Origin: an uncultured Microbulbifer sp. | GTDB taxonomy: Bacteria > Pseudomonadota > Gammaproteobacteria > Pseudomonadales > Cellvibrionaceae | Assembly: GCF_947504145.1 (NCBI RefSeq) | Contig: NZ_CANNGQ010000001.1 | Span: 248,001-312,000 of the forward strand | Direction of reading: 5' to 3' | DNA length: 64,000 nucleotides | In this document: positions 44,550 to 59,981 of the stretch, piece by piece | How positions within the stretch are numbered: the stretch's first letter is position 1 | Layout: each line of letters opens with the position of its first letter | Notes under the pieces: model-generated | The model's database searches: none | Told to the model about the DNA's origin: nothing | The model's input: only the letters and a program-made list of their open reading frames with translations | Position numbers and translations under genes: made by a program

Positions 44550-44637
44550 GGTGAGGTGTCCGAGTGGCTGAAGGAGCACGCCTGGAAAGTGTGTATACGG
44601 CAACGTATCGAGGGTTCGAATCCCTCCCTCACCGCCA
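44550..44637 (+). tRNA. tRNA-Ser (GGA)
   Basis: 88 bases including CCA, with the long variable arm of a class II tRNA (TGTGTATACGG-type). The anticodon loop is CTGGAAA (anticodon GGA), and the acceptor stem GGTGAGG pairs with CCTCACC. Its 3' end is the integration site of the mobile element; the gene stays intact because the element restores the same 27 bases. Confidence 0.97.
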
Positions 44638-44638
44638 T
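44612..44638 (+). repeat. attL core repeat
   Basis: 27 bases running from GGGTTCGAATCC to CACCGCCAT inside the T arm, acceptor stem and CCA of tRNA-Ser, repeated exactly at 59955-59981. Confidence 0.95.
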
Positions 44639-44641
44639 CTA

Positions 44642-44665
44642 AGCCTTTGATTTTAAAGGCATTTT
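44642..44665 (+). terminator. Element-supplied hairpin after tRNA-Ser
   Basis: GCCTTT pairs with AAAGGC over a 6-base loop and is followed by ATTTTC just after attL. It may terminate the tRNA transcript in place of the displaced original terminator. Confidence 0.5.
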
Positions 44666-44682
44666 CGGAAATTTGTCCCAGA

Positions 44683-44736
44683 ATGGGGCAAAAATGGGGC
44701 AAAACCGCGAATCATTGCATTAGCTGTTTTGCCCCA
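44683..44736. promoter_or_regulatory. Left arm-type integrase sites (candidate)
   Basis: Two tandem copies of ATGGGGCAAAA (44683-44693 and 44694-44704) with an 11-base period, then an inverted copy TTTTGCCCCA (44727-44736) at the integrase stop. The same motif recurs in tandem near attR (59844-59871), as expected for arm-type sites of a lambda-like integrase. Confidence 0.65.
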
Positions 44737-45970
44737 GCCGGGCCGCAATCGCCCGGTTCATTTCCGAAGCATTCCCCGTTTCATCCGCTTCAATCCATTC
44801 CCCGTAATGCTTCTTCAGCATCTCTGTATCCCTGTGCCCCATTTGCCGGGCGATGACTTCCTGTGGGACACGCATGGTCAACATTTGACTGGCGAACGTG
44901 TGGCGGCACTGATTCGCTGATCTTGGGTCGACACCAGCCTTCAGGCAGAGTCGTTTGATTGCGCGCTGTATCGACGTTTTGCCCCAGGGGCCTCCGCTGC
45001 GGTTGACCCGCCAAATGAACTGGACTGGCTCCCACATGCGTTGCACATTGTTGCGCTGGGTCACCTGCACATCGATTGGTGGCAGTAGTCGGGTGCGCTC
45101 CATTTGCGCTTTCAGCAGATCGGCAGCTTTTTGGTTCAGCTCAATGGTGCGGTTGCGGTGTGTTTCCTTCGGGACGCGATATTCGAGGTCCACCAGCGCG
45201 CGACGGATTCGGAGCTTGCCTGTCTTCCCTGCGTTTTCCAGATCATTCCAGCCAAGGGCCATGGCTTCGGATACGCTAAGACCAGTCCAGCAATTGAACA
45301 GGAAGAAATCCACATCTGGGTCGCTGGGGCGGAGCCGTTCCAGTAGGGATAGCTCCTTCAGCGTGAAGGGGTTCTTTCGGCGTCTTGCTGGGTTATCGGT
45401 TTCGTTGGCACCTGGATCGGTAATGCGGTCGGCCACATTCTCCGCCAGTACACCATCCTCGAATGCCGTTCTCAGCACCCAGCGTAGAATCGGCGTGATG
45501 TTGCTGACAGTTTTGGGAGACACCCCGCCGGCGAGTAGATGCGCAATGAACTTGTCGGCATCCCGCTTGCTGATATCCCGCACACGACAGGACTCCGTGA
45601 AGTAGTCCAGCAGATGCTGATAGCGGCTCCCGTCCGCCTGCCAGGTTTTGCGGGCCTTGCGCATCTTGGCGTCGGCCAAATGCTCATCAAGTTTTTCTGC
45701 CAGCGTTACATTCAAATTGCTGCCGGTGTTTCCGCAGGCATCCAGCACCCTTGGGCTGTCGGGGAAATGCTTCCGGTAATTGAATGTTCCCTGCTTGATT
45801 TCAGCAACAATCACGTCCCGCAAAGATGCGCAGTGTTTGATGTTGCCTGGCGTCACTACATTGGTGATCGTCTCCTTGCAGCGGCGCCCCTTGTACATGA
45901 ACCAAATGCGCAGTGATGCGCCATGAAACTCCACCCCCGTGGGGAGCTTGCCCTCTAGCTTTCTAGCCAC
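44720..45970 (-). CDS. Tyrosine recombinase (integrase) with DUF3596 arm-binding domain
   Basis: A 416-residue integrase that should insert and, with the excisionase, excise the element. It opens with the arm-type DNA-binding DUF3596 segment (LPTGVEFHGASLRIWFMYKG), then a SAM-like core-binding domain and the catalytic domain. QCRHTFASQML and GHRDTEMLKKHYG hold the second Arg and the Tyr nucleophile. The first catalytic Arg, normally in TGLR, is Ser (WTGLSVSEAM), and the box II His position is Asn. I chose the GTG at 45970, with GAGGAA 8 bases upstream, overlapping the excisionase end by 16 bases. Confidence 0.9.
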   Translation of the reverse strand: MARKLEGKLPTGVEFHGASLRIWFMYKGRRCKETITNVVTPGNIKHCASLRDVIVAEIKQGTFNYRKHFPDSPRVLDACGNTGSNLNVTLAEKLDEHLADAKMRKARKTWQADGSRYQHLLDYFTESCRVRDISKRDADKFIAHLLAGGVSPKTVSNITPILRWVLRTAFEDGVLAENVADRITDPGANETDNPARRRKNPFTLKELSLLERLRPSDPDVDFFLFNCWTGLSVSEAMALGWNDLENAGKTGKLRIRRALVDLEYRVPKETHRNRTIELNQKAADLLKAQMERTRLLPPIDVQVTQRNNVQRMWEPVQFIWRVNRSGGPWGKTSIQRAIKRLCLKAGVDPRSANQCRHTFASQMLTMRVPQEVIARQMGHRDTEMLKKHYGEWIEADETGNASEMNRAIAARLGQNS

Positions 45971-46185
45971 TTCGAAATTTCCTCGATGTTGTATACCAGC
46001 CGGTTGGCTGGGTCTTTTTTGAAGTGCTTCCCTTCCATCCATGCACCCTTGAGCCTGTAGTACTCAACGGCATCCTCTGTGAACCCAAAAATTGCGGGCA
46101 ACAACTTGCCGCGCACCCATCGTGCCGGCACCACCCCCACTGATGCGGTTCTAACTTCCTGTTTTCTTGATTTCGTCCTTTCCAT
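45955..46185 (-). CDS. Excisionase (Xis-like)
   Basis: A 76-residue basic protein matching the excisionase-like family: WVRGKLLPAIFGFTEDAVEYY, then RLKGAWMEGKHFKKDP, then LVYNIEEISKWLES. This is the winged-helix pattern in which the last helix contacts DNA. It directly precedes the integrase on the same strand with overlapping reading frames, so directionality factor and recombinase are co-expressed. It overlaps the upstream zinc-finger-like gene by 35 bases. Confidence 0.85.
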   Translation of the reverse strand: MERTKSRKQEVRTASVGVVPARWVRGKLLPAIFGFTEDAVEYYRLKGAWMEGKHFKKDPANRLVYNIEEISKWLES

Positions 46186-46786
46186 GGTTTTTCTCTTCGT
46201 AAAGCCGTTGCCGGCAGGTTGTAGAGCAGGTGACGCGCCGGCGAATGCCAGTCCTCATAACGGCGCCGCACCAGGCACATTCAGAGCAATTGAATGGGGC
46301 TTTCAGAAAATCCATTGCCGGGCGATAGAACTGCGTCCAAATCGGATCGCCGCGATCAACCTCCACCAGTTGCTCATCACTAAATTCCACCACTTTTCTG
46401 AGGGGGTGATCCCCTAGCCAATTTGTCAGCATAGCCGCCCCCAGGCCTGTATCACCGGTTACGAAATCTGCTGACGAAAGCCGGTCGAAGACAGAGCCGG
46501 GCAGACACTCTTCGAGGGTATCCCGCTGCCCGAGAATGATTTCTGCCAGTGCCCGGGACAGCTTGCGCAGCTCCCCGTGCATGTTTGCCTCCGAAACCTG
46601 TTCAGGTAGAGCTTTCGCCAACTTGTCCGTGAGCCGTAACAGCTTCCTGTTACGGATTGTGGCGGCAACACCGGCAGCGCTGTCCTCAGTTTGCAGGCTC
46701 TGAGGCTCCGCAAGCATCAGCAGGTAGTCGAGCCAATACACCCGAAGGTCAGAGGCTGTCTTGCTTTCTGGCTGCATTTTTTTCAT
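46151..46786 (-). CDS. Unknown protein with C-terminal zinc-finger-like motif
   Basis: A 211-residue protein that I do not recognise. Most of it is helical (about residues 10-140). Near the C-terminus CSECAWCGAVM is followed by CSTTCRQRLYEE, giving a Cys4-type zinc-binding pattern like that of small phage and plasmid regulators. The ATG at 46786 lacks a good ribosome site; a TTG 21 codons upstream is the alternative. It is the first gene of the leftward xis-int transcript. Confidence 0.65.
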   Translation of the reverse strand: MKKMQPESKTASDLRVYWLDYLLMLAEPQSLQTEDSAAGVAATIRNRKLLRLTDKLAKALPEQVSEANMHGELRKLSRALAEIILGQRDTLEECLPGSVFDRLSSADFVTGDTGLGAAMLTNWLGDHPLRKVVEFSDEQLVEVDRGDPIWTQFYRPAMDFLKAPFNCSECAWCGAVMRTGIRRRVTCSTTCRQRLYEEKNHGKDEIKKTGS

Positions 46787-46812
46787 CACTAGAAATACTT
46801 CATTAGAAACTG

Positions 46813-46889
46813 TTGACGCAAATCTGCCATGCGTTGTATGTTTTGTCAAACACTGACGTAAAAGCCAAAAATAAACGTGTTTACGTCAA
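46813..46889. promoter_or_regulatory. Divergent control region with repeated TTGACGTAAAC-like motif
   Basis: Copies: TTGACGCAAA (46813-46822), CTGACGTAAA (46853-46862) and the inverted GTTTACGTCAA (46879-46889). A further exact copy, TTGACGTAAAC, is at 59900-59910 near attR. A rightward promoter TTGACG-18-TATGTT (46813-46842) overlaps the first copy. This looks like the operator switch between the leftward xis-int and rightward replication genes; a role in recombination is the alternative. Confidence 0.5.
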
Positions 46890-46907: not shown

Positions 46908-47081
46908 ATGGGAAGGCGCAAGAAAGCACCACCATTGATCGCGGTATCCGTATACCTGACGGCGGACGATAAGCGGCGTCTTAAGCGGCAAGCAGAACGG
47001 ACCGGCCGTTCTATTGCTGCCGAGATTCGTCATCAGTTGGGGTATGGAGATGCGGCAACAAAGCAGGAGGTAAGCCAATGA
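46908..47081 (+). CDS. Small ribbon-helix-helix DNA-binding protein 1
   Basis: 57 residues, starting MGRRKKAPPLIAVSVYLTAD and continuing DDKRRLKRQAERTGRSIAAE. A basic N-terminal tail, a beta strand (IAVSVYL) and two helices give the Arc/MetJ-type fold. GGGAGG lies before the ATG. It overlaps the next gene by 4 bases. It is the first rightward gene beyond the control region and the best candidate for its repressor. Confidence 0.7.
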   Translation: MGRRKKAPPLIAVSVYLTADDKRRLKRQAERTGRSIAAEIRHQLGYGDAATKQEVSQ

Positions 47082-47233
47082 GCAGCACAGCAGTTCAGGT
47101 TCGACTGCACCCAGTGCAGGCCAGGGAGCTTCGAAAGGCGGCCGCTGACAACTACCGTAGCGTTAGCGCTGAAGTCCGGGCCAGGCTGCAGCTGGACTCG
47201 GAAAAGGCTCGACGTAAAGCCGCCAACAAGTAA
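47078..47233 (+). CDS. Small ribbon-helix-helix DNA-binding protein 2
   Basis: 51 residues, MSSTAVQVRLHPVQARELRK followed by a helix ending VSAEVRARLQ. It has the same strand-helix-helix plan as the preceding protein and is translated by ATGA overlap with it. The two could form homo- or heterodimers. Confidence 0.65.
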   Translation: MSSTAVQVRLHPVQARELRKAAADNYRSVSAEVRARLQLDSEKARRKAANK

Positions 47234-47246: not shown

Positions 47247-47288
47247 CCCGTCAAAAAATTATCGGCTTTTTGCTGACGGGATTCTTTT
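47247..47288 (+). terminator. Hairpin after the ribbon-helix-helix pair
   Basis: CCCGTCA (47247-47253) pairs with TGACGGG (47274-47280) and is followed by ATTCTTTT. It is a weak terminator that may reduce read-through into the SSB-like gene. Confidence 0.5.
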
Positions 47289-47310
47289 GCCTAAAAAATG
47301 GAGTTTTGAA

Positions 47311-47781
47311 ATGGATATTTCACAAGCATTTAAAAGCAGTTTCGCAAAGGCTGCAGATTTTCCGGTCCCGGTGCGGGTCAGTGTTCTGCAGGTAGAAATG
47401 GAACCAGTGGGGCGGGATCAGCAGCTGAAGCCGGTTGGTACTTTCCGCCGGCTTGATACGGGCGAGAGTATTCGCGTGACGATAAATCAGACCAACGGTC
47501 AGCGATTGGCGGGCGCGTTTGGCCATGACACTGACCACTGGGTAAATCGGCAGGTAGAGATCAGCGCAAGACCAACCACTTACCGCGGGCAACCGGTGCA
47601 AGGTATTCACATGGAGCCGGTCGTGGCTACTCCCAATACGGAATACCAGACCAACCCGCCAGCCCAACAGGCGCAACCTCCGATGCAGTCACAACGACCG
47701 CAACAGCCAGCGCCGCAACAGGCACCACAACAGCCTGGGCAGCTTTCCCAAACCAATCCGAACGATGACATTCCGTTTTAA
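47311..47781 (+). CDS. SSB-like protein ending in DDIPF
   Basis: A 156-residue protein. An N-terminal beta-rich domain (about 1-108) contains VRVSVLQVEMEPVGRD, ESIRVTINQTNGQRL and HWVNRQVEISARP. A Gln/Pro-rich linker (about 115-148) follows, and the final residues are DDIPF. That tip is the same as in bacterial SSB proteins, where it recruits replication and repair enzymes. I do not recognise the N-terminal domain as canonical SSB, but strand order and position before a primase make a diverged OB fold likely. The ATG has GGAG 7 bases upstream. Confidence 0.7.
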   Translation: MDISQAFKSSFAKAADFPVPVRVSVLQVEMEPVGRDQQLKPVGTFRRLDTGESIRVTINQTNGQRLAGAFGHDTDHWVNRQVEISARPTTYRGQPVQGIHMEPVVATPNTEYQTNPPAQQAQPPMQSQRPQQPAPQQAPQQPGQLSQTNPNDDIPF

Positions 47782-47909: not shown

Positions 47910-48347
47910 GTGCGCAAGTATCATTCATTCCATCCCAATCGATGGAACAACGACTATTACCGGCTAACGGAAAGGGGTTACAGGCACCTTGTCCTCTACT
48001 GGTATCTTGAGAGCGCCCCCGAAAGCCATCCAACCGGGCTGTACTGCATCCTGCCTGAATCGATGGCAGCCCACACAAAAATCCCGGTGCATGACGTATT
48101 TGCGATCCTTGGCGACCTTGAGGTGGTAAGGCTAATTCGCTGGGACCCCAATGCGCACATCGTTTGGGTGTTGGCATCTTGTGAAGGTCAGTACCGATGG
48201 AAGCAAGGCCCCGACAACCCGATTCCGTACAAAGACAAGCGGATAAAAGAGGCCCGGCAGCACATCAAGAGCTTGCCCAGTAGTCCGCTGGTCGATGAGT
48301 TCCTGCAAAGTTATCCGTTTTTGGGTGCCGAGGAGGTCGCACAATGA
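47910..48347 (+). CDS. Unknown replication-module protein
   Basis: A 145-residue basic/aromatic protein starting at a GTG with GGGAGAG upstream. The N-terminal part has RWNNDYYRLTERGYRHLVLYWYLES. It is followed by a winged-helix-like HTKIPVHDVFAILGDLEVVRLIRWD, in which the DNA-binding domain appears to span residues 20-85. This pattern is common in phage replication proteins that precede primase or DnaC-like genes, but I cannot name a family. The stop overlaps the primase start by 4 bases. Confidence 0.6.
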   Translation: MRKYHSFHPNRWNNDYYRLTERGYRHLVLYWYLESAPESHPTGLYCILPESMAAHTKIPVHDVFAILGDLEVVRLIRWDPNAHIVWVLASCEGQYRWKQGPDNPIPYKDKRIKEARQHIKSLPSSPLVDEFLQSYPFLGAEEVAQ

Positions 48348-49375
48348 TCCGCGTCGCCACCACACTGGAATACCTGCACTGGTGCTTTCGGGACAATCCT
48401 ATCATTGAGCTGCGCCACCAATTGGGCGGTCGATGGCAGTCCACCTGGCACGACGACCCTGAAAGTCTATACCGCGCCGCACAGCAACGATGCCGGCAAG
48501 GCAATCTGTTTATTTCACAGCAGCACATTCCCCGGGCGCCACAAGGCCCGCTGAAGAATGCGGATGTAGACCGGTATTCACGACTGCTGTTTGACTTCGA
48601 CCCGGTACGCAAGCCGGGAACCGCCTCAACGGATGCCGAACTGGCCGCATCCTTGGATCGCGCACTGTCGGTAAAGAAATACCTGACTTTGTGTGGCTGG
48701 CCCATTCCTGCAATCGCCATGAGCGGGAATGGTTATCACCTGGTGTACCGCTGCACGCTGTTGGCTACTCCCATTGCTGCGAAAAAACTTTCGACCCTTT
48801 ATCGCGGGCTGGCGGAGCGGTACTCCGATGAGCTGGTGAACTTTGATATTGCCGTTCGCAATCCTGGCCGCATCGGTACGTTGTACGGCTCGATCAAGCG
48901 CAAGGGTACACCGACAGCGGAGCGGCCCCACCGGCAAAGTCAGATCAGCATCCCATCCAGTTGGCCACAAGTACCCGCAAAGCGGGTAAACAGTGTGGTC
49001 GAGCTGCTTGCCCGCAAAGAGCAGCAGACAACCACCAAACCCACATTCAGCTCGCAGGAGCGCAAGCCACTAATGGGCGCGGGAGATTACGCGAGTCTCG
49101 ATGTGGTGAGCTGGTTTCAGTCGCGGGGAATGTATGTCACCGCCGGTCCGGAAAACATGCACTTTGTACGCTGCCCCTGGAGTGAATCCCACTCCACCCC
49201 GTCGCCTGAAAATGGTTCTGACGTGGTGATCTTTGAGTCTGACGGTTCTTGGCCGGGATTTCACTGCAAGCACGCGAACTGCGCGAACCGAAACATTCGG
49301 GACGTGATCCAGTTGCTGGGTGATGCAGATCAGTTCTGCACCAGGGTTTTCGAGGGAGGGAAAATTCATGGCTGA
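48344..49375 (+). CDS. Archaeo-eukaryotic-type primase (AEP) with zinc-binding C-terminus
   Basis: A 343-residue primase/primase-polymerase. The three AEP catalytic motifs are visible: DxD at D84-F-D86 (LLFDFDP), sxH at S127-G-N-G-Y-H132, and the third acidic residue D168 with the following RNPGRIGTLYG loop. The C-terminal part (about 250-343) has C277, H283, C308, H310 and C313, which fits a zinc finger. It overlaps both neighbours (4 and 8 bases) and sits just before the helicase, which indicates an element-encoded primosome. Confidence 0.82.
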   Translation: MIRVATTLEYLHWCFRDNPIIELRHQLGGRWQSTWHDDPESLYRAAQQRCRQGNLFISQQHIPRAPQGPLKNADVDRYSRLLFDFDPVRKPGTASTDAELAASLDRALSVKKYLTLCGWPIPAIAMSGNGYHLVYRCTLLATPIAAKKLSTLYRGLAERYSDELVNFDIAVRNPGRIGTLYGSIKRKGTPTAERPHRQSQISIPSSWPQVPAKRVNSVVELLARKEQQTTTKPTFSSQERKPLMGAGDYASLDVVSWFQSRGMYVTAGPENMHFVRCPWSESHSTPSPENGSDVVIFESDGSWPGFHCKHANCANRNIRDVIQLLGDADQFCTRVFEGGKIHG

Positions 49376-50930
49376 AATTACATTGCACCCGTTTCAACAG
49401 GATTTAATTGGTGAGCTGCGTGAAGGGCTTCGGAACGGGCACAAGCGGCAGGTGCTGGCGCTGGCCACCGGTGGCGGTAAGACCGTGGTTGCCGGTGAGC
49501 TTGCTCTACGCGCAGCACAACGCGGCAAAAAATTGTTATTCATCGTGCACCTGCAGGAGCTGGTACGGCAGGCGTGCCGACACTTTGAGAGTATTGGCTT
49601 GCGGGTGGGGGTGTTGCAGGGCGAAAACACGGCTTACAGCCCGCACGATGACCTTGTTGTGGCCAGCATCCAGACGTTCAGCCGCCGTGAGATGCACCGG
49701 CGTATCGACTGGATCGATTTTGTGGTGATCGATGAGGCGCACATTCTGCACGAGGGGCACATTGAGCTGATGCGCCTCTGGAATGCGCTGCCCTTCATCG
49801 GGCTGTCGGCAACGCCGATGCGCCAGGGCATGGGCAAATACTTTTCCAGTCTGGTGCGTGGGCCTTCTGTTGAGTGGCTGACGGAGCAGGGGTTTCTGGT
49901 GCCGGCCCTGGCCTACTGCCCTGGCGCTGCGGCACTGCAGGAGATGCTTTCGGCTGTCCCGGTGGGCAACACCGTGAACGGGCGCGATTACAAGGTTAAC
50001 GAGCTGGGTTTGGCCATGCGGCAGAAGACCCTTGTGGGTGACATTGTGGGCACCTGGCAACAGCGCGCAGAAGGCCGGCAGACGCTTTGCTTTGCGGTGA
50101 ACAAGGCCCACAGCCGCGAGATCGTCGACCAGTTTCTAGCGGCTGATATCGAGGCCGCTCACATCGAAGACCGTACCCCGGTGGAGGAGCGGGAGATTCT
50201 GATAGCGGCCTTCCGGAAAGGCCAGATTCGGGTGTTGTCATCCGTGGGGGTGCTGGCAATCGGGTTCGATGTGCCCACGGCTTCCTGTTTGATTCTGGCG
50301 CGGCCTACCAAGTCTTTGTCGTTGCATATCCAGCAGTTGGGTAGGGGTATTCGCCGCGCCGATGGGAAAGACGACTGCATTGTGCTGGACCATGCCGGCA
50401 ATGTGGTCCAGCACGGCCTGCCGGTGGATTTCGTGGTGCCTGACCTCGATGGGGGTGATAAGCCCGCAAACAGTAGCAGCCGCTCAGAGTCCCCTGCAGG
50501 CGTTGTGTGCGCGAATGCGGAGTGCAGCCATGTAATGAGCCGGGAAGTCTTTGTGTGCCCCGCCTGTGGGCTTGATAGGCCCAAACCGGAATCCGGTGTG
50601 GTGATTGTGGATGGCCGGCTGGGGGTGTACGGCGAGGAGGCTGCACCAGCCGCTACGGGTGAAACCCTGCAGGAGCTGAAGCGCCACTACTTGCAGGTGA
50701 TGGGCTGGTGCCGCCTGAACGACCACAGATCGGGGTATGCCTACCACCTGTGTCGCAAGCGGTTTGAGAGGTTTGCTGAGGCCAACAAATTGACCGGTCA
50801 CCAGCTTAACGGCCTCACTTGGCCATGGAAAACCCAGCCTGCAATTGAACCCACTCAGGAGGTCGCCCGATGGTGCGCAGGGCAGCATAAAAGGCTCCTA
50901 ATTATTGCCAAAAAGAGTGGCCAAAAGTGA
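49368..50930 (+). CDS. Superfamily 2 DNA helicase with zinc ribbon
   Basis: A 520-residue helicase. Walker A is ATGGGKT (about residues 34-40), the DEAH box is VVIDEAHILHEGH (about 117-129), motif III is GLSATPMRQG, and motif VI is QQLGRGIRRADGKDD. A Cys4 zinc ribbon (CANAEC and CPAC) follows near 400-425. Related proteins are widespread in phages and plasmids with a presumed role in origin melting or fork progress. The ATG at 49368 follows GAGGGAGGG and overlaps the primase stop by 8 bases. Confidence 0.87.
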   Translation: MAEITLHPFQQDLIGELREGLRNGHKRQVLALATGGGKTVVAGELALRAAQRGKKLLFIVHLQELVRQACRHFESIGLRVGVLQGENTAYSPHDDLVVASIQTFSRREMHRRIDWIDFVVIDEAHILHEGHIELMRLWNALPFIGLSATPMRQGMGKYFSSLVRGPSVEWLTEQGFLVPALAYCPGAAALQEMLSAVPVGNTVNGRDYKVNELGLAMRQKTLVGDIVGTWQQRAEGRQTLCFAVNKAHSREIVDQFLAADIEAAHIEDRTPVEEREILIAAFRKGQIRVLSSVGVLAIGFDVPTASCLILARPTKSLSLHIQQLGRGIRRADGKDDCIVLDHAGNVVQHGLPVDFVVPDLDGGDKPANSSSRSESPAGVVCANAECSHVMSREVFVCPACGLDRPKPESGVVIVDGRLGVYGEEAAPAATGETLQELKRHYLQVMGWCRLNDHRSGYAYHLCRKRFERFAEANKLTGHQLNGLTWPWKTQPAIEPTQEVARWCAGQHKRLLIIAKKSGQK

Positions 50931-51042
50931 CGCCGAGAAAATTACAAAAACGCGCCAAACCCAAACCCCTTTTGGCGGTCGCTTCCTCATCGAGCGGTTG
51001 TGACAATACACGCCATGTTGAATCTGATGCCCGCGAAATGAT

Positions 51043-51071
51043 GCCCCTTCGAAGCCCCTTCGAAGCCCCTT
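51043..51071 (+). repeat. Tandem GCCCCTTCGAA repeats
   Basis: Two full and one partial 11-base repeat. Each contains the palindrome CTTCGAAG. The inverted counterpart lies about 120 bases downstream. Confidence 0.75.
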
Positions 51072-51185
51072 GTCGCCAAATAAAACGAGCTAGATTTGGA
51101 GAGGGGTTCAGGGTTAGTGTCCACCAACCTGATCGAAAAGTGTGCGGACAGGAAGTGATCAATGCGTACAGGAATCAACCATTGG

Positions 51186-53046: not shown

Positions 53047-53390
53047 TGAAAGACACCGACAACCCCGGCCGCCCCTGGCACGAGTGGACCAAAAAGGCGA
53101 TTGCCGACGCGCGCAAAGGTGTTTTAGATGCGGTGGCAATCGTCATCAAAGACGAGCGCGCCGATACACGCAAGGCCATCGATGACGCCATTCGGCCAGT
53201 TATGAGACAACTGGAAACGGTCACCCATGACAGTGTTGTTTTGCCACAAATCGCCCTGCTGCAACTCGCCCGCCATCGAAAAAACATTTCCAACTATTGC
53301 GCGAAAAGCCTGAACCACCGTTCAAAGGTGGTGCGCGGCACCCCGCCTGAATTCTGTAAATCCTGGGGGTGCCACGATGACCAAAAATGA
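53043..53390 (+). CDS. Small unknown protein with helical N-terminus
   Basis: A 115-residue protein beginning with two consecutive ATG codons (53043 and 53046). The N-terminal half is one long charged helix (WHEWTKKAIADARKGVLDAV and following), and the C-terminal half is basic with two Cys. No family recognised. It overlaps the next gene by 14 bases. Confidence 0.6.
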   Translation: MMKDTDNPGRPWHEWTKKAIADARKGVLDAVAIVIKDERADTRKAIDDAIRPVMRQLETVTHDSVVLPQIALLQLARHRKNISNYCAKSLNHRSKVVRGTPPEFCKSWGCHDDQK

Positions 53391-54009
53391 CGTTATCCAG
53401 CACGAAGTTCAGCACGCGGTCGCGGACCTGGCATTTCTGGCCCGTTGCGCTGGTCGCCTGGGCTTCGACCGCCAGCAAGCATTCGAAAAAGCAAGCACGT
53501 ACCTTGCCGTTGATATGGACGGCTTGCGCGAAATGGGTGGTGCGCTCGGTGCTGAGTATTTGACCGGTCTGCCCGACAACCTGGACAACTTTTGCCGCGG
53601 CGCCGGTGCGCTGGCGCCTGCCATCGCGCGCAAGCCGGATGCGGTTGGTTTCGCTATTCGGGAAAAGTCGATTGAATCTCTGGTTGCTGTCGGTGAGCTA
53701 TCCGATGGCGATGTTCAAATCTTCGAGGCGGCGAACTGTTCTCTGGAAGATGCGCTGATCGCTGGCTTGGCGGTCGTGGAACTTCAAAAAGCGCTCGGAT
53801 ATGTGGGTTGGCGTCGGTTCTGCAAATCGGTCTATACGCTGGCCGACCATGATCTGGTACCGGCCGAAAAAATTTTACCGCTGGATACATTGGACCGGCT
53901 CAACCGCAAGGCGCACGCCCGGTACTGCGCGATTCGCCAAAGTGTTGCCGGCGAGCGCATCGACTTTCAAAAACTACAACAAGGCCGCTCGATATTTGTT
54001 GGCCGCTAA
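53377..54009 (+). CDS. Unknown helical protein
   Basis: A 210-residue protein, all-helical by composition, starting MTKNDVIQHEVQHAVADLAF. The segment ALGYVGWRRFCKSVYTLADHD is near residues 139-159. No catalytic motif is visible. It lies between overlapping genes in the tape-measure operon, and its stop is next to the following start region. Confidence 0.6.
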   Translation: MTKNDVIQHEVQHAVADLAFLARCAGRLGFDRQQAFEKASTYLAVDMDGLREMGGALGAEYLTGLPDNLDNFCRGAGALAPAIARKPDAVGFAIREKSIESLVAVGELSDGDVQIFEAANCSLEDALIAGLAVVELQKALGYVGWRRFCKSVYTLADHDLVPAEKILPLDTLDRLNRKAHARYCAIRQSVAGERIDFQKLQQGRSIFVGR

Positions 54010-54023: not shown

Positions 54024-54731
54024 ATGAACAAACAAACCGTAGCGCTACTCGTGCACGAACTCTGCCACGGCCTGGTGCGGACCGCGCTGGCCCCCATCAA
54101 GGGCGACGTGCTGCATATCCTGTTGGACGACCGCGGCGGCCTGTGTGCCTACCAGCCAACCGGTGACCCCGAAATCGATACCGCCTGCACCGCCGCCGGC
54201 CCCATTGGTGAAATCCTGCATCACGCCGAAGAACATGCCGTCAAGATTGCCAGCCGAATTTTGTGGCAACCCTGGACACTGCTGACGATGTGCCAGCCGC
54301 TGGCCCCCGAGGACCACGAAATACTGCAGCAAGCGCACAGCGACGACTCGGAAAACTTCAATCGTGCGGTGCGCCTGTCGGTGCTACTGACGCAATCGTT
54401 TGTCGGTGACGGCGCGGTGGCCTTTGCCGCGAAACAGGTAGCGCAGGATATGGGCGAAGTAGTGCAGACCGGCGTATTGCTCGCCCACTTCGGAAACCTG
54501 GGCCGGCAGATCGAGGGCACCCAATTGTTGCCATTGGGGCGGGCCAATGTGGCGCAGACCATTCGATTCGATCACCCGGTGACCGCGGAGGCGACCCTAC
54601 ACACATTCACACCGCCGGACCGGGGCGACAGTAGCGGGCAAGCCCTGTACCGCCTATTGACCTGGCAACCCCAGCCGCTGCCGTCAGAATTCAATGAATC
54701 GTTTGAGAATTTCGACCGTGACCGCGTTTGA
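54024..54731 (+). CDS. Unknown protein with HExxH metallopeptidase-like motif
   Basis: A 235-residue protein. Near its N-terminus it reads VALLVHELCHGLVR, an HExxH motif (His11 to His15), followed about 45 residues later by EILHHAEEHAVK, which could give further metal ligands. I do not recognise the rest. I chose the ATG at 54024, with GAGGG 8 bases upstream, over the earlier ATG at 54009. A zinc peptidase acting on a virion or host protein is possible, but a coincidental motif cannot be excluded. Confidence 0.6.
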   Translation: MNKQTVALLVHELCHGLVRTALAPIKGDVLHILLDDRGGLCAYQPTGDPEIDTACTAAGPIGEILHHAEEHAVKIASRILWQPWTLLTMCQPLAPEDHEILQQAHSDDSENFNRAVRLSVLLTQSFVGDGAVAFAAKQVAQDMGEVVQTGVLLAHFGNLGRQIEGTQLLPLGRANVAQTIRFDHPVTAEATLHTFTPPDRGDSSGQALYRLLTWQPQPLPSEFNESFENFDRDRV

Positions 54732-54933
54732 TGAAATTCAGGAAATCGTCGCCGGCTCAAACTGGCGCATCCTGCACGATAAACAGGGTGTTGCGTGGGC
54801 GGTCGAAATTGCAGGCGAACAGACCATTCTGAACCGCCAGGAGCCTGTGAACGTGCAAACCTGGCGGGCGATTTCCGAATATGTGGATCGCCGCCGTGCA
54901 CAAACCACCCGCACCGGTGACCCGCCCAAATAA
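54694..54933 (+). CDS. Small unknown protein
   Basis: 79 residues, with DEIQEIVAGSNWRILHDKQG and VEIAGEQTILNRQEP. The ATG at 54694 overlaps the preceding gene by 38 bases and has no ribosome site. A GTG at 54718 (71 residues) is an equally plausible start. No family recognised. Confidence 0.55.
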   Translation: MNRLRISTVTAFDEIQEIVAGSNWRILHDKQGVAWAVEIAGEQTILNRQEPVNVQTWRAISEYVDRRRAQTTRTGDPPK

Positions 54934-54964
54934 TTCGATCAGCTCTTGAGCAAAGGAGGTGGCG

Positions 54965-55396
54965 GTGTCCGACCAGTTAAAAGTTGAATCGAATCTCGGT
55001 TACATCGATGAGATGTTGCAGAATTTCACACGCCAGGCAAGCAACCAAATCTATGGTCGGGCCGTAGCCAGGTCAGCAACAAAATTAAGCCGGTTAATGC
55101 GGAAAGATGCCCCGAGGGTTTCGCGCAACTTAGTCAAAGACCTTGGAACTCGTCGCCTCCGCGGGAAACGCATTCGCATCGTCGGCGTTCGTTGGCGCTA
55201 TTACTACAACACGCTGGAAATGAAAACCAACCGACCGGGAACACCTTTCAACCCCTGGTTTCGGGATTCGTTCAACCGGCACGCTCCTGGTGTTCTCAGA
55301 GAAATGGAACAGGAAATGCTCGACGCCATCAACCAGGTAGCCGAAAGGGAAGATCGCAAGTCCCGTGGCGTTCCCGTGAGGAGACCCAAAAAATGA
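54965..55396 (+). CDS. HK97 gp10-like phage protein
   Basis: A 143-residue basic protein resembling the HK97 gp10 group of head-tail or tail-completion proteins. It has an N-terminal helix (SNLGYIDEMLQNFTRQASNQ), an AVARSATKLSRLMRKDAPRVS core, and RYYYNTLEMKTNRPGTPFNP, which is typical of the group. The start is the GTG at 54965 with GGAGG 5 bases upstream. It overlaps the tape-measure start by 4 bases. The assignment rests on motif pattern and context, and it is the only other structural-type phage gene. Confidence 0.6.
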   Translation: MSDQLKVESNLGYIDEMLQNFTRQASNQIYGRAVARSATKLSRLMRKDAPRVSRNLVKDLGTRRLRGKRIRIVGVRWRYYYNTLEMKTNRPGTPFNPWFRDSFNRHAPGVLREMEQEMLDAINQVAEREDRKSRGVPVRRPKK

Positions 55397-57516
55397 GCGC
55401 TTTCGGATTACTACAGGTCGCCCTGACGGCGAAGACTGCCAGCTTCAACCAGTCGATGCGTCAAAGCGCCACCGCTACAGAACGCCTGCAGCGCAATGTG
55501 CGGCAACTTGATCAGCGAATGGCGCGCGCACAACGCAGTTTTGCGAATTTTGCCCGTGCAGCTAGTGCCTTCACCGGGTTAGCACTTAGCACCTCCACAA
55601 TTAAAAGTTTTCTCGACGCCACCGACCAGCTCGCCAAGATGGCGCGAACGGTCGGCATTTCCGTTCAAGAATTACAGGCGCTAGAACATATCAGCGAACG
55701 CGCTGGAATCAGTACCGAACAACTTAATACTGCGCTGCGTGGGTTCGCTGTGCGCGTGGGTGAAGCAAGGGCGGGCACAGGTTCGCTAGCGTCCTCTTTG
55801 GGCCGAATTAACCCATTAGCGTTGAAAAATATTGTTAACGCAAAAAACCAATCTGAGGCGCTTGGTGCATTGGCCAACGCCATTTCCGGCGCGAAGGATG
55901 AGACCGATAAACTTGCAATCGCGTCAGCAGCCTTTGGTACCCGAAATTCTGAACTCGTCCGCGTATTTGGTGAAGGCGCCGAGGTGCTTCAACAAACGGT
56001 GGATGAAACCAATAAAAAAATGGGGGCGTTCAACACTGAACAGACGGCCACGGCGGAGCGGTTGAACGATATCTGGGCTGACATAAAGAAAAAATTCAAA
56101 ACCACTGTTGGAGGCGCTTTCCTCGATTTTGCCGCATGGGTAGAGGGGCCGATGCGGCGCATCTGGAATGGCGCCATGCAGCTGATGAACATGATGGCGG
56201 CCGGTTTGGAGACGGTCGGGACTCTGATGTCTGCCGTTGCGCAAGGTGGGGATGCGGTTCGTTGGGACAACCTGAAAAAACGCTTAACAGAAATCAATGA
56301 AAAGTATTCGGAACAGTCGCGGTACATGAGTGAGATGATTCTGACGGGCAATACCGCCGCCGATACCGTAGCCAAGAAAGTTGCCCGCCTTAGCGGCGCA
56401 ATGAAGGAATACGCAGACCAGGTAAAAGCCGCGATTGACGCGTTGGCACCGCCACCAACCACGACACAGGAACTCGAAGAACTTGATTCGAAGTTCGAAT
56501 CGCTAAAGCGGTCTTTAGACCCTGCATATCGCTCTATGCAGGAATTCAATGATAGCGCTGAACTCCTAAACAAGTTGCTTGCCGAGGGCAAGATTACCCG
56601 TGATGAGTACAATCAATGGCTGGGCACACTGAAAGACCGACTGTTTGAGGCGTCCAAGGAATGGAAGGATTTCCTCGATGTGGCGCGCGAAGTTGAGGAG
56701 GACATTAAACGGCAAAATGCACAGAACGCCGAAGCGGCTGCCCGTTTCGAAGCGCTGAAATCCCGACTGGCTTCGCTAAAGGCGGAAGTTGATCCCCTGG
56801 TCGCCAATTTGCAGCGCTGGAATGAGGCGCAAAACACACTCAACGAGTCAGTGGCCGCGGGTCTGATCACACAGGAAGAAGCCACGCAGACAATGGAGAA
56901 ACTCCGCGTTCAGATGGATAAGACCGCGGCCGATGGCGCACAGGCAAGCGAGTCACTGGCCCACGCGGTTGGCGGTGTGCTGCAGTCCAGCGTGTCGAGT
57001 TTTGCAGATTCGCTGATTGAATTTGCCACCAGCGGAAAGTTTGCCTTTAAAGATTTTGCCAACAGCGTGATTCAGGATATCGCCAAAATGGTGATTCAAT
57101 TTCAAGCGTTGCAATTGATCAAAGGTTCCAGCCTGGGGAGCTTCTTTGGTATCACCGGATCAGCCCACGGCAACGCATTCAATCACGGCCAGATACTGCC
57201 GTTCGCCCATGGTGGAGTGATTTCCGGCCCGACTATGTTTGGCCTGGCGGGCAACCGCATGGGTATTGCTGGCGAGGCCGGCCCCGAGGCGATCCTACCC
57301 CTACGCCGCGGCAGTGATGGCGACCTAGGTGTGAAGGCTGACGTGCATGTCACGGTGAACAACAACGCGCCCGGTACCGTAGCGACCGCCACCTCCGATG
57401 AAGCGGGCAATATCGAAATCACGGTCAACCAGATTGCCCGTGACATTCTTTCCGGCGGTGGCCGGGTAAGCCGCGCATTGGAAACCACCTATGGTGTGAC
57501 ACGCGGCCGTGGTTAG
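55393..57516 (+). CDS. Lambda-type phage tail tape-measure protein
   Basis: A 707-residue protein that fixes tail length and passes through the tail lumen at infection. It begins MSAFGLLQVALTAKTASFNQ. Long helical stretches follow (for example residues 25-60 and 430-520) with a hydrophobic segment near residues 240-290. The C-terminal part reads FADSLIEFATSGKFAFKDFA and IQDIAKMVIQFQALQLIKG, as in the lambda gpH C-terminal family, and then AGEAGPEAILPLRRG. If the helices set length, the tail would be about 100 nm. The ATG overlaps the gp10-like stop. Confidence 0.9.
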   Translation: MSAFGLLQVALTAKTASFNQSMRQSATATERLQRNVRQLDQRMARAQRSFANFARAASAFTGLALSTSTIKSFLDATDQLAKMARTVGISVQELQALEHISERAGISTEQLNTALRGFAVRVGEARAGTGSLASSLGRINPLALKNIVNAKNQSEALGALANAISGAKDETDKLAIASAAFGTRNSELVRVFGEGAEVLQQTVDETNKKMGAFNTEQTATAERLNDIWADIKKKFKTTVGGAFLDFAAWVEGPMRRIWNGAMQLMNMMAAGLETVGTLMSAVAQGGDAVRWDNLKKRLTEINEKYSEQSRYMSEMILTGNTAADTVAKKVARLSGAMKEYADQVKAAIDALAPPPTTTQELEELDSKFESLKRSLDPAYRSMQEFNDSAELLNKLLAEGKITRDEYNQWLGTLKDRLFEASKEWKDFLDVAREVEEDIKRQNAQNAEAAARFEALKSRLASLKAEVDPLVANLQRWNEAQNTLNESVAAGLITQEEATQTMEKLRVQMDKTAADGAQASESLAHAVGGVLQSSVSSFADSLIEFATSGKFAFKDFANSVIQDIAKMVIQFQALQLIKGSSLGSFFGITGSAHGNAFNHGQILPFAHGGVISGPTMFGLAGNRMGIAGEAGPEAILPLRRGSDGDLGVKADVHVTVNNNAPGTVATATSDEAGNIEITVNQIARDILSGGGRVSRALETTYGVTRGRG

Positions 57517-57648: not shown

Positions 57649-57810
57649 ATGGAACCGAAAGACAAGACAGGCGCCGAACGTGCGCGCCGGTACCGGGAGC
57701 GGCAGGGAAAGCACGGTTTGAAGAAAGTCGCATTGTGGATTCGCCCCGAATACGAAGCCAACGCCAGGCGCGCGGAAAAGCGCTGGCAAAAACCCAAGGA
57801 TGGCAAATGA
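57649..57810 (+). CDS. Small basic ribbon-helix-helix-like protein
   Basis: 53 residues: a basic helix (GAERARRYRERQGKHGLKKV), then VALWIRPEYEANARRAEKRW. The strand-plus-helix end resembles a ribbon-helix-helix core. It has GGAGCGGA before the ATG. The palindrome just upstream suggests autoregulation. It is the third such small protein in the element. Confidence 0.6.
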   Translation: MEPKDKTGAERARRYRERQGKHGLKKVALWIRPEYEANARRAEKRWQKPKDGK

Positions 57811-57826
57811 AGTATCGAGATACGCC

Positions 57827-58579
57827 ATGCTACGCATCACCCTGGTCTGTTCGCGCTATGCGCTCAATAAGCGAGTAAGCCGCAAGCCCTGCGGCACCCT
57901 CGAAAAACACCCACCACTGCCACTCGCGGACGGCAAGGCCGCCACCCTGGAGGTACCCACCCCGGCGGCCTTCGGGGCGGTCTTGCGCGATGCCGGCACC
58001 GATCCCAATGCCATCCTGATCGGCGGCTATGCTGACCGGCCATCGTTTCGGCTGGTGTCACAAAAGAAACTGGCCACCGCCCCTGACGGCCTGACCCGCA
58101 CAAAGGACAATTTCACGCAAAGCAGTTGGGTTCTCTTCGACTACGACCGCCCAGCGAATATGCCTGCCCACCTGCAGTACACCACCGCAGGTGAATGGCT
58201 TGCGGCCATGGGTCGATTGATTCCCGGGTTCAGCGCTGCGGGCAAGGTGGTTTCCCCATCCACCAGCGGCCGCATTCTGTTCGATGGCAAACCAGCCGGG
58301 CCGGCTGGGTGGCACTGTTGGGTTCAGGTGCAAGACCCGGCGGACGTGGGACGGTTTCGGAAGGCACTGCTCGAACGCGCACAGGGCACCCCATACGGCT
58401 TTCTACGGCGCTGGGGTGGTGGCAAGCGGAAATGGTCGATATTCGATCCCACGGCACTGGGGAGCGCAGAGCGGGTGATTTTTATTGGGGCACCGGAAGT
58501 GCACGGGAAAGGGCTGACGGTGGCGCGTCCGGATATTCAGGTAATCGATGGGGGGGCACTGGACACGCGGCGGGTTTGA
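57827..58579 (+). CDS. Second primase-fold (AEP-like) protein
   Basis: A 250-residue protein resembling the N-terminal primase domain of phage primase-helicases. The motifs are D105-Y-D107 in WVLFDYDRP, an sxH-type H163 in AGWHCWVQVQ, and D207 in WSIFDPTAL. The N-terminal segment is LVCSRYALNKRVSRK, then VPTPAAFGAVLRDAGTDPNA. Phage homologues usually continue into a helicase domain of several hundred residues; this one stops after the primase core. The ATG at 57827 was preferred over 57800 because the latter lacks a spaced ribosome site. It starts 16 bases after the previous stop. Confidence 0.65.
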   Translation: MLRITLVCSRYALNKRVSRKPCGTLEKHPPLPLADGKAATLEVPTPAAFGAVLRDAGTDPNAILIGGYADRPSFRLVSQKKLATAPDGLTRTKDNFTQSSWVLFDYDRPANMPAHLQYTTAGEWLAAMGRLIPGFSAAGKVVSPSTSGRILFDGKPAGPAGWHCWVQVQDPADVGRFRKALLERAQGTPYGFLRRWGGGKRKWSIFDPTALGSAERVIFIGAPEVHGKGLTVARPDIQVIDGGALDTRRV

Positions 58580-58660
58580 TTCAATGGCCAGGTGGTGCCC
58601 ATCCAGTACCATTGCGCTATCCTACCCCGAAACCCCACCACAGCCAGTCAGGGAGGCCGC

Positions 58661-58822
58661 ATGGGCAGACGGAGCCGTCCACCGAAAAGCGTTCGTGAAG
58701 GGAAGGCACCGCCCCACCAAAATAGGTCGAGCGGTTCCGACGCGGAAAAGAGCCGGGAATTGAATCGCCTGCGTTACGAGAATGCGCGACTGCGGCGGGA
58801 GCTGGATAAATACCGGCACTGA
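58661..58822 (+). CDS. Small basic coiled-coil protein
   Basis: 53 residues. The N-terminal half is basic and Pro-rich (MGRRSRPPKSVREGK) and the C-terminal half is a leucine-heptad coiled coil (LNRLRYENARLRRELDKY). GGGAGG lies 5 bases before the ATG. The plan resembles a small DNA-binding zipper protein, but no family is recognised. Confidence 0.55.
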   Translation: MGRRSRPPKSVREGKAPPHQNRSSGSDAEKSRELNRLRYENARLRRELDKYRH

Positions 58823-59010
58823 TACACTGAACAGGCCGCGCTATGCGAGCGAGGGGCCTTCCACTCGCTGATTGTCAGTTTGTGTCGGATTGCCAGTTTC
58901 TACCGTGAGAAACTGGCACGCCTATCAACGCGTGCCCATCTGCCCATATTCCCACCTGCCCATTTCCCCGGTAACTTCTAGGTTCCAATAACAACCCGAA
59001 GGAGTGGGGC

Positions 59011-59241
59011 ATGACCATCAAACGAGATATTGAACGGAACCGCCGAAAGGCGCTGCAGCGGCATTGCCGACCCAAGGCAATGAAACCCCGTGAGCGAGGC
59101 CAGCAGATTGAAATCCGCCGCAACCGGGAGCCACAGCATGTACAAGTGAAGTCGCTGGGGAAAACCATATCTATCCCCGTGCCCGAGTCCGCTGCACAGC
59201 CCGCGGCCATGGAATTGACGATCAATTGGGGAACCAGATGA
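59011..59241 (+). CDS. Small unknown basic protein
   Basis: 76 residues, with KRDIERNRRKALQRHCRPKA at the N-terminus and a beta-like VQVKSLGKTISIPVPES toward the end. AAGGAG lies 7 bases before the ATG. It overlaps the next gene by 4 bases. Function unknown. Confidence 0.6.
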   Translation: MTIKRDIERNRRKALQRHCRPKAMKPRERGQQIEIRRNREPQHVQVKSLGKTISIPVPESAAQPAAMELTINWGTR

Positions 59242-59483
59242 TGAAGGTTCAAGTTTCAGAGCGGGCACTATTGCGCCGGATCAACCGTCGCCTAGAGGAT
59301 AAGCTGGAGGAGGTATGCAAATGCGCCGAAAGCTCACAGTGGCACAGCGACTTGGGCGATTACTACTGCGTGGATCAGAACCTGAACACCGTTATTGCGC
59401 AGCACATCGATCTGGAGGCATGGGGCAGAGAACTGGGAGCGCTGAAGCCCCATGAGGAGATGGCCCAAACCGAGCCAGCATAG
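59238..59483 (+). CDS. Small unknown phage-type protein
   Basis: 81 residues starting at adjacent ATG codons (59238 and 59241) with overlap to the previous stop. The content is VSERALLRRINRRLEDKLEE and GDYYCVDQNLNTVIAQHIDL. Small proteins of this kind accompany phage primase genes in other genomes, as I recall, with no known role. Confidence 0.55.
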   Translation: MMKVQVSERALLRRINRRLEDKLEEVCKCAESSQWHSDLGDYYCVDQNLNTVIAQHIDLEAWGRELGALKPHEEMAQTEPA

Positions 59484-59499
59484 GCAGTTATACTGCCCC

Positions 59500-59599
59500 T
59501 GCCGCACCCCACCAGTCCCCTGTGAGGGCATCCGACCGGGATCGGAACCGTGCGCTGCGCCAGTGGCCGCGCCAGGCGGTTTCGGTTCGGGGTGCGGCA
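59500..59599 (+). ncRNA. Candidate structured RNA
   Basis: TGCCGCACCCC (59500-59510) pairs perfectly with GGGGTGCGGCA (59589-59599). The 78-base interior is GC-rich with its own short complementary segments. TTATACT (59488-59494) just upstream could be a -10, without a clear -35. No T tract follows the stem. Confidence 0.35.
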
Positions 59600-59788
59600 C
59601 CCCCATTGCTTGCCTGCGGTTTAATTTGACGCCAAACTATCCCTGTCTGCCTGCCCTGGGCAAGCGGGCACTGCCGGCCCACCGTCTGACAGTAAGTGGC
59701 ATTATTTTGGGGGAGTGGGCCGGCGCTACCACTCACCGGTAAACCTTCCCGCTCTCCGCAATAGAATCCGCATAGGCCTGCCCTCGTG

Positions 59789-59871
59789 TTTGCCCCAATT
59801 TTCACGCCAGATAAGGCCTGCGGCCCATCGACCCCTCCCTCACTTGGGGCAAAATTGGGGCAAATGGGGCA
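59789..59871. promoter_or_regulatory. Right arm-type integrase sites (candidate)
   Basis: TTTGCCCCAA (59789-59798) in one orientation and three tandem copies in the other: TTGGGGCAAAA (59844-59854), TTGGGGCAAA (59855-59864) and TGGGGCA (59865-59871). They match the motif at the left end. Confidence 0.65.
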
Positions 59872-59954
59872 GGGTTGTACACGGGACTACAAGGGTTTGT
59901 TGACGTAAACTGATGTTTTCACAGTCGTATACGGCTACAAACGGGCTGTAACTT

Positions 59955-59981
59955 GGGTTCGAATCCCTCCCTCACCGCCAT
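59955..59981 (+). repeat. attR core repeat
   Basis: Exact second copy of the 27-base attL core from the tRNA-Ser 3' end, without the rest of the tRNA. Confidence 0.95.

What the first reader, a model, noticed from the sequence alone, without database searches (positions are those of the whole stretch)
44612..59981. Replicating tRNA-Ser element that carries a tape measure but no capsid or packaging genes
The sequence shows perfect 27-bp att repeats, integrase and excisionase, its own primase, helicase and SSB-like protein, then an operon ending in gp10-like and tape-measure genes. No terminase, portal, capsid, baseplate, tail fibre or lysis gene is visible in 15.3 kb. Known satellites (P4, PICIs, capsid-forming PICIs) borrow or redirect virion parts; one that supplies its own tape measure could set the length or identity of a helper's tail. 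A prophage that lost its other genes is the plain alternative, but the intact overlapping operons argue against random decay.
Basis: partly seen in the sequence, partly recalled or inferred. Interest (0 to 1): 0.78.

Follow-up and report, generated by a model that had tools for sequence, protein, structure and literature searches.

The report
Satellite element carrying phage tape measure
A 15-kb piece of DNA inserted in a bacterial tRNA gene looks like a parasite of phages that copies itself but brings little more than the ruler protein of a phage tail, and two distant relatives found here bring a few inner tail parts too, as was recently shown for satellites of the cholera bacterium.

Summary
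The 15.3-kb element at 44612-59981 is bounded by perfect 27-bp repeats in tRNA-Ser. It has an integrase, an excisionase, a DnaD-like/primase/RadD-like-helicase module with an iteron cluster, and a coupled operon ending in an intact 707-aa tape measure protein (TMP). No head, packaging, tail-tube or lysis gene was recognised. The "gp10-like" and "SSB-like" labels are weak. Of 41 same-genus tRNA-Ser sites examined, two are empty, two hold other insertions, the rest are undetermined; none holds a homolog.

The module recurs in a second att-bounded element, L125, without TMP. Helicase searches led to further integrase-bearing elements; three have a small terminase subunit. Two, L297 and L300, carry a TMP plus a baseplate hub and no recognised tube, sheath, head or large terminase. 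L297's pair is 51% and 62% identical to the TMP and hub of a phage contig, in swapped order.

Best reading: a satellite that replaces the core of its helper's tail, as shown experimentally for V. cholerae PLEs (PMC12987554). The idea is therefore published; this would be a new lineage and variant. Packaging, helper and chimeric tails are untested here.

The parts
44550..44637 (+). tRNA-Ser (GGA), integration target
   Evidence: ARAGORN
44612..44638 (+). att copy, left (27 bp, perfect)
   Evidence: D5
59955..59981 (+). att copy, right
   Evidence: D5
44684..44703 (.). two TGGGGCAAA repeats inside the left end; possible integrase arm sites (role inferred)
   Evidence: D3
59845..59871 (.). two TGGGGCAAA repeats and a partial third inside the right end, same motif
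   Evidence: D3
44720..46042 (-). tyrosine integrase (440 aa)
45955..46185 (-). excisionase (DUF1233)
46151..46849 (-). unknown 232-aa protein with a C-terminal cysteine-containing stretch
   Evidence: no clear family
46908..47081 (+). ribbon-helix-helix-type small protein
   Evidence: RHH_1 E 7e-4 and FitA-like E 2e-5, below cut-off
47078..47233 (+). second small protein, overlapping the first by ATGA; not scanned
47287..47781 (+).
47910..48347 (+). DnaD-like replication protein
   Evidence: phrog_1701 E 5e-5; 39% to L125
48344..49375 (+). primase (AEP-like motifs)
49368..50930 (+). RadD-like SF2 helicase
   Evidence: phrog_16 E 1e-84; NF053632 RadD E 2e-43 but below cut-off
51034..51214 (.). 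GGGGCTTCG iterons and a 16-bp palindrome; candidate origin (inferred)
   Evidence: same motif in L125
51992..52813 (+). operon gene A, 273 aa, unknown
52810..53046 (+). operon gene B, 78 aa, unknown
53043..53390 (+). operon gene C, 115 aa, unknown
53377..54009 (+). operon gene D, 210 aa, unknown, no relative found
54024..54731 (+). operon gene E, 235 aa, HELCH motif (possible metallopeptidase, by eye)
54694..54933 (+). operon gene F, 79 aa, unknown
54959..55396 (+). operon gene, 145 aa, weak tail-completion/neck match
   Evidence: phrog_5 E 0.0017; not supported
55393..57516 (+). tape measure protein, 707 aa, lambda/siphophage type
57649..57810 (+). small protein, 53 aa, not scanned
57800..58579 (+). 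second primase-like protein
   Evidence: phrog_16593 E 5e-10
58592..59483 (+). three small ORFs (58592-58822, 59011-59241, 59226-59483), unknown

Best explanation
It is a phage satellite of PICI-like build. It integrates into tRNA-Ser by a tyrosine integrase, excises, and copies itself with its own DnaD-like/primase/RadD-like-helicase module from an iteron origin. A helper phage supplies head, packaging motor, tail tube and lysis. The satellite's operon then puts its own tape measure (perhaps with a partner protein made just before it) into the helper's tails, giving chimeric tails on satellite particles. Shown here: boundaries, gene content, intact reading frames, absence of recognised head, packaging, tube and lysis genes, two empty sites in the genus, and relatives with the same kind of module plus tail-core genes. 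Inferred: excision, replication, packaging by a helper, the incorporation of the TMP into virions, and the helper, which must have a long tail whose tip or baseplate accepts a lambda-type TMP.
For: Perfect att repeats in tRNA-Ser and integrase/excisionase; two natural empty sites (G039, G018) among 41 genus sites examined. Replication module shared with L125, an 11-kb element flanked by 53-nt repeats (89%) at a tRNA-Met (primase 43%, helicase 50%, DnaD-like 39%), with the same GGGGCTTCG cluster. Helicase relatives in the class (7 of 369 genomes, own included; seven places outside the own genome): five of those seven places (L295, L296, L297, L299, L300) have an integrase on the same stretch (L300 by phrog_1; the others by inspection); L298 and L301 were not examined for it. 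Three carry a TerS (L296 phrog_51 2e-16, L299 phrog_57 3e-20; L300 phrog_57 4e-11). L300 has TMP (phrog_2276 4e-34) and Mu-type hub (phrog_177 6e-101). L297 (primase and helicase 38% and 39% identical to the window's) has a hub-like and a TMP-like protein of about 707 aa, 62% and 51% identical to two adjacent proteins of an 81-kb phage contig, in swapped order. At E 1e-6 nothing but TMP in the window, and TMP and hub in L297 and L300 (with shadow frames of these two in L297), matched the ORFs of 24 phage stretches. TMP is intact and translationally coupled. Experimental precedent: PLE TMP, TAC and BhuB in chimeric tails (PMC12987554).
Against: No TerS, cos/pac site, capsid-remodelling gene, tail chaperone or hub was recognised in the window element (cos/pac was not searched for). 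No resident helper with a matching tail is seen: the TMP has no other match in the own genome, and the one strong terminase match of family phrog_2 (G000:C2) lies in a prophage whose TMP-like ORF, picked by eye, is different. Genes D and E and the 145-aa protein found no relative in any collection searched, B, C and F no family, so the operon is seen once only. The partner label is weak. Of 160 primase-bearing and 7 helicase-bearing loci only L297 and L300 carry a TMP or hub that my models detect (other TMP families would be missed and many loci are short). L125, the nearest relative, has none. The ends of L297 and L300 are not defined.
Confidence: 0.5

Rival explanations
1. Tail-assembly interference: the element is a satellite or island, but its TMP (with its neighbours) is a decoy that poisons the tails of an infecting siphophage, as a defence, and is not used in its own particles.
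For: Tail-assembly interference encoded by PICIs and P4-like satellites is known (Tai, PMC11364771, passages read), and PLE11's Rta targets a phage TMP. No hub or chaperone that would help the TMP into a tail is recognised in the window. No resident helper with a matching tail is seen.
Against: The TMP is full length, with both conserved regions (Pfam 18-182, below cut-off, and 516-576), which a decoy might not need. L297 and L300 carry TMP with hub, the pair used in PLE11 chimeric tails. PADLOC gave only generic helicase and coiled-coil hits.
Confidence: 0.2
2. Degenerate prophage: an integrative replicon left over from a siphophage that lost head, tube and lysis genes.
For: TMP relatives taken for inspection (18 loci) sit among phage genes: 14 beside BLAST-detected virion genes, L027 with terminase- and portal-like ORFs by eye and L026 and L033 in a contractile tail module by eye, L032 with a weak terminase match (E 4e-5). 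Five further places were not taken. Replication genes of this kind also occur in phages.
Against: All frames intact and coupled; nothing else in the element matches those prophages; none of 41 same-genus tRNA-Ser sites holds a homolog of any element protein at E 1e-4; D absent from 144 other relatives; related elements with equally partial tail gene sets exist, one with the order swapped.
Confidence: 0.15
3. Non-packaged integrative plasmid-like element that has picked up a TMP gene with no present role.
For: No packaging gene recognised; L125 and L295 have a module of this kind with no virion gene that I recognise.
Against: A 2.1-kb gene placed inside a coupled operon and kept open; TerS in three relatives points to packaging.
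Confidence: 0.15

Closest known systems
PLE (phage-inducible chromosomal island-like elements of Vibrio cholerae, helper ICP1)
   Same: Integrated satellite with its own tape measure and without a large terminase; PLE TMP shown in virions, chimeric tails, tmp deletion cuts transduction (PMC12987554 section 8; PMC7567579 passages).
   Different: PLEs also encode a tail chaperone and some a baseplate hub, depend on ICP1 products for replication with a RepA (PMC7567579 passages), and have a contractile-tailed helper. Here: lambda-type TMP, own primase and helicase, no chaperone or hub recognised, tyrosine integrase at tRNA-Ser.
PICI of Gram-negative bacteria
   Same: Size, integrase, excisionase, primase-centred replication module with origin next to it; TerS in some PICIs and in three relatives here (PMC6092414 passages).
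   Different: No AlpA/MerR regulator or TerS recognised in the window; replication proteins of another kind; carries a TMP, not mentioned in the passages read. That paper notes capsid-protein homologs in PmCI172 and SaPIbov5.
cf-PICI
   Same: Putative tmp genes reported in a sampling of cf-PICIs (legend of Extended Data Fig. 10, PMC12987554).
   Different: cf-PICIs are capsid-forming and carry packaging genes (the latter recalled); none recognised here.
PICMI
   Same: Small satellite with integrase and primase and no capsid-remodelling gene (PMC10803314 passages).
   Different: PICMIs sit next to fis with AlpA and a DUF3987/DUF5906 primase; not so here; no TMP mentioned in the passages read.
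P4 and phiAH14b
   Same: Own primase (phiAH14b also a helicase-like protein), helper supplies the virion; phiAH14b even has a homolog of a tail assembly protein I (PMC4936722 passages).
   Different: No P4-type replication protein, Psu or Sid match here (features recalled). None of phiAH14b's own proteins was detected in the virion.

Membership tests
PICI | specific attachment site with integrase and excisionase | tested here: met
PICI | primase-centred replication module with origin beside it | tested here: met
   iterons (origin function inferred)
PICI | AlpA- or MerR-type regulator (Gram-negative PICIs) | tested here: not met
   no such match; a ribbon-helix-helix-type protein instead
PICI | TerS (present in some PICIs only) | tested here: not met
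   none in window; present in L296, L299, L300
PICI | absence of phage genes of the structural kind | tested here: inconclusive
   a TMP is present, other structural classes not recognised; the passage seen is cut after 'the absence of phage', and the same paper reports capsid-protein homologs in two PICIs
PICI | phage-dependent induction and packaging in phage particles | not testable with these tools
   needs experiment
PLE | satellite-encoded TMP | tested here: met
PLE | tail chaperone (tac) with tmp in all PLE variants | tested here: not met
   no TAC match; small genes B and F unassigned
PLE | sequence relation to PLE genes | not tested
   no PLE sequence was fetched
cf-PICI | capsid and packaging genes | tested here: not met
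PICMI | integration beside fis, AlpA, DUF3987/DUF5906 primase | tested here: not met
   tRNA-Ser site; no such Pfam match
P4-like satellite | P4-type helicase-primase and decoration/scaffold genes (Psu, Sid; features recalled) | tested here: not met
   no such match
Complete prophage | head, packaging, tail tube and lysis genes | tested here: not met

The most novel reading that the evidence does not exclude
A lineage of PICI-like satellites built on a RadD-type helicase carries an exchangeable 'tail-core' cassette (tape measure with hub or another partner) matched to the tail type of its helper: lambda type here, Mu type in L300, another long-tail type in L297. Swapping the inner ruler and its seat would let a satellite decide which tails are finished on its own particles and stall the helper's. 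This would extend chimeric tail building from one Vibrio-ICP1 system to siphophage and Mu-like tails across Gammaproteobacteria.
Probability: 0.35. Interest if true: 0.8.

Novelty: new variant of a known kind. Interest (0 to 1): 0.55.

Why it matters
Tail takeover by satellites was reported in one experimental system in 2026. If an unrelated satellite lineage does the same with other tail types, replacing the tape measure is a general way to steal virions, and the gene sets here suggest which tail parts are enough: TMP alone or with one partner in the window, TMP with hub in L297 and L300. That would make the open question of how a satellite TMP is chosen over the helper's testable in simpler phages.

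Tried and rejected
Close relatives of operon genes D, E, the 145-aa gene and of the TMP were sought in viral contigs, D in genome contigs, and D, E and the 145-aa gene in phage records: none confirmed; these contig scans need exact short peptides and reach close relatives only. The TMP has matches in 441 phage records at E 1e-5 or better, none covering 80% of it. D was found in 1 of 145 relatives (the own genome); primase in 2 of 145 (own and one at E 5e-4); TMP in 12 of 145 at E 1e-3 and in 7 of 390 at E 1e-12 (own included); the primase profile in 2 of 398 phylum genomes (own and G987, not followed); L297's helicase in 3 of 36 genomes of G673's family (G835 not followed).

Idea that TMP relatives share more than the TMP with the element: rejected. 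Idea that genus tRNA-Ser sites hold a complete version: rejected for 41 of 48 genomes. Seven were not examined (own, G001, G004, G007, G009, G026, G047), and two stretches were cut short by contig ends (L253, L264). A site could be called empty or filled only where the GGDEF neighbour was found (G039 and G018 empty, G046 filled) or, in G032, from a second att copy; 37 remain undetermined.

Large-terminase searches with phrog_2 alone are a weak test: 3 of 13 genomes with phage TMP loci had no match, among them G074, whose L025 has a terminase-like ORF by eye, and the family rings in 11 to 13 of 14 control genomes. I therefore lean on ORF size: apart from reverse-strand ORFs that overlap other genes (one of 461 aa in L297 was not scanned), no unassigned ORF of 400 aa or more remains in the window element, L297 or L300.

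Profile comparison of the 145-aa protein with five phage neck-type proteins gave probability 1.4%. Genes E and A against similar-looking genes of L300: no relation, nor the 145-aa protein. TMPs: window and L300 share 32% over 82 aa (E 1e-7); window and L297 nothing. No relative of L300's TMP was found in viral contigs. No tRNA repeat for L297's right end was found. L298 and L301 were searched only for element proteins, TMP and hub. In one search, single matches in L125, L299 and L304 were an integrase and ORFs outside or beside the elements.

Paper searches for a TMP in satellites or related terms. Of the six papers I opened, PMC12987554 alone reports it; I read its section 8 in full and passages. 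Of PMC11364771, PMC7567579, PMC4936722, PMC6092414 and PMC10803314 I saw passages only; the others only as listings.
Full report
1. Observation. The window holds an integrated element between perfect 27-bp repeats at 44612-44638 and 59955-59981, the left one being the 3' end of tRNA-Ser(GGA). Leftward genes are a tyrosine integrase, an excisionase and an unknown protein. Rightward come two small proteins, an 'SSB-like' protein without family support, a DnaD-like protein (phrog_1701 E 5e-5), a primase and a RadD-like helicase (phrog_16 E 1e-84). A stretch with the motif GGGGCTTCG four times within 154 bases follows. In the whole 64-kb window the motif occurs only these four times, against 1.15 expected, and 1 of 100 dinucleotide shuffles reaches four anywhere; 0 of 300 block shuffles of the element reach four within 160 bases. 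It includes a 16-bp palindrome; I read it as a replication origin. Then genes A, B, C, D, E, F, a 145-aa protein and a 707-aa TMP run as one unit; A/B, B/C, C/D, E/F and the 145-aa gene/TMP overlap. The TMP carries both Pfam regions expected (PhageMin_Tail below cut-off, Tape_meas_lam_C above) and matches 28 PHROGs families. A second primase-like gene and small ORFs close the element.

2. Is something missed? Twenty element proteins were scanned with Pfam and PHROGs, ten with NCBIfam and ten with PADLOC. None gave a head, packaging, tube, baseplate, fibre or lysis family. ORFs of 24 phage, prophage and tail-module stretches matched only the TMP. Integrase, helicase and TMP are the only ORFs of 400 aa or more. 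Most genes A-F found no relative, and the structure models were too poor, so an unrecognisable capsid cannot be excluded by structure.

3. Site history. All 48 genomes of the genus match the 389-base tRNA-Ser query (G047 only over the tRNA part at 82%). I took the downstream stretch in 41 of them. No element protein has a match in any at E 1e-4. The GGDEF gene that follows the element in the window follows the tRNA directly in G039 (346 bp) and G018 (246 bp): empty sites. In G046 it lies 16.7 kb away, and in G032 a second att copy lies 14.6 kb from the tRNA with unrelated genes between. The other 37 could not be judged. The tRNA gene is a shared landing place.

4. Relatives of the replication module. 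A scan of a collection with one genome for each of 84,980 species, with a six-row primase alignment, found 317 relatives, of which the best 80 were kept; the best by far is L125, an uncultured Thiodictyon contig, 43% over 334 aa. It has the DnaD-like, primase and helicase genes in the same order (39%, 43%, 50%), an integrase by eye, and repeats of 53 nt (89%) at 3647 and 14809, the second in a tRNA-Met. GGGGCTTCG is iterated five times within 81 bases there. L125 has no TMP that I detect. So the window element belongs to a kind of integrative replicon whose cargo varies.

5. Relatives that carry tail genes. A helicase search of 369 class genomes gave seven with a strong match, own included. 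Five of the seven other places have an integrase on the same stretch, a DnaD-like or initiation protein and a primase in most, and the helicase (partly by eye). L296, L299 and L300 have a small terminase subunit. L300 has a minor-tail/completion-type protein (phrog_1924 E 1e-33; its gene is broken by a run of N), a TMP (phrog_2276 E 4e-34) and a Mu gp44-type hub (phrog_177 E 6e-101; Pfam Gp44/GpP domains). L297, whose primase and helicase are 38% and 39% identical to the window's, has a hub-like protein (phrog_1015 E 2e-9) and a protein of about 707 aa with a transglycosylase domain at its end and a 'tail protein with lysin activity' match before it, which I read as its TMP from length and place. 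In an 81-kb viral contig (L312) the relatives of these two stand side by side between a sheath-like gene and baseplate-like genes (by eye) and are 62% and 51% identical; in the phage the TMP comes first, in the element the hub comes first. A swapped order is not what a simple deletion leaves. Neither neighbourhood shows head genes or a large terminase: no unassigned ORF of that size remains save reverse-strand overlaps, phrog_2 finds G611's only match on another contig and none in G673 (a weak test), and the flanks carry no virion genes that I recognise. L300 begins near a contig start and L297 has no repeat found, so their ends are open. Among 160 primase loci and 7 helicase loci, only these two carry TMP or hub genes that my models detect. 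The association is recurrent but not common.

6. Mechanism. In V. cholerae PLEs the satellite's TMP, with chaperone and in some cases hub, replaces the helper's in the tail; tmp deletion cuts transduction by about 96 to 99.9% (PMC12987554, section 8). The two relatives here carry inner tail parts and not the tube or sheath. I therefore take tail-core replacement as the most likely use. The TMPs are of different kinds, which fits matching to different helpers. The window element carries the least: TMP and perhaps the 145-aa protein. The only strong phrog_2 match of the own genome lies in a prophage with a different tail (type read by eye as P2-like), so the helper, if any, is probably not resident.

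7. Alternatives. A decoy against siphophage tails is possible (Tai, PMC11364771, passages). A decayed prophage is less likely given intact coupled genes, empty sites, unrelated neighbours and related partial sets. A TMP with no role cannot be excluded.

8. Novelty. Satellite-encoded TMPs are published for PLEs, and putative ones for other Vibrio elements and cf-PICIs. I found no report of such genes in elements with this replication module; the searches cover only the open library and did not search for this module by name. Verdict: new variant of a known kind, moderately high interest, mechanism unproven.

Noticed in passing
L026 (G086) 4506-12475 and L033 (G062) 4355-12366: A Mu-like contractile tail module (sheath, tube, TMP, hub, baseplate, by eye) with no head gene seen in 20 kb, in two genomes of one genus: looks like a tailocin or a tail-only element.
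   Followed up: partly
L019-L024 (G122): Six prophage stretches in one genome; sheath proteins of the other five are 93-95% and tube proteins 96-100% identical to those of L019.
   Followed up: partly
window 57800-58579: A second, different primase-like gene after the TMP; relatives in Shewanella phage SFCi1 (27%) and Pseudoalteromonas phage KB12-38 (31%).
   Followed up: partly
window 51034-51214 and L125 9783-9863: The same iterated motif GGGGCTTCG in two distant elements, after the helicase in one and inside the DnaD-like gene in the other; absent from L297, L300, L295 and L296.
   Followed up: partly
L274 (G010) and L268 (G045): Two full tRNA-Ser copies 2.7-2.8 kb apart in the same orientation: a small insertion or duplication at the same site.
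   Followed up: no
L235 (G032) and L244 (G046): Unrelated insertions of about 14.6 and 16.7 kb in the same tRNA-Ser; the one in G032 has an integrase and a UmuC-like gene by eye.
   Followed up: partly
window 54024-54731; L300 15246-15923: HExxH-type motifs in a gene of both TMP-bearing elements (HELCH; HEAGH with a sub-cut-off Peptidase_M41 match), but no sequence relation between the two.
   Followed up: partly
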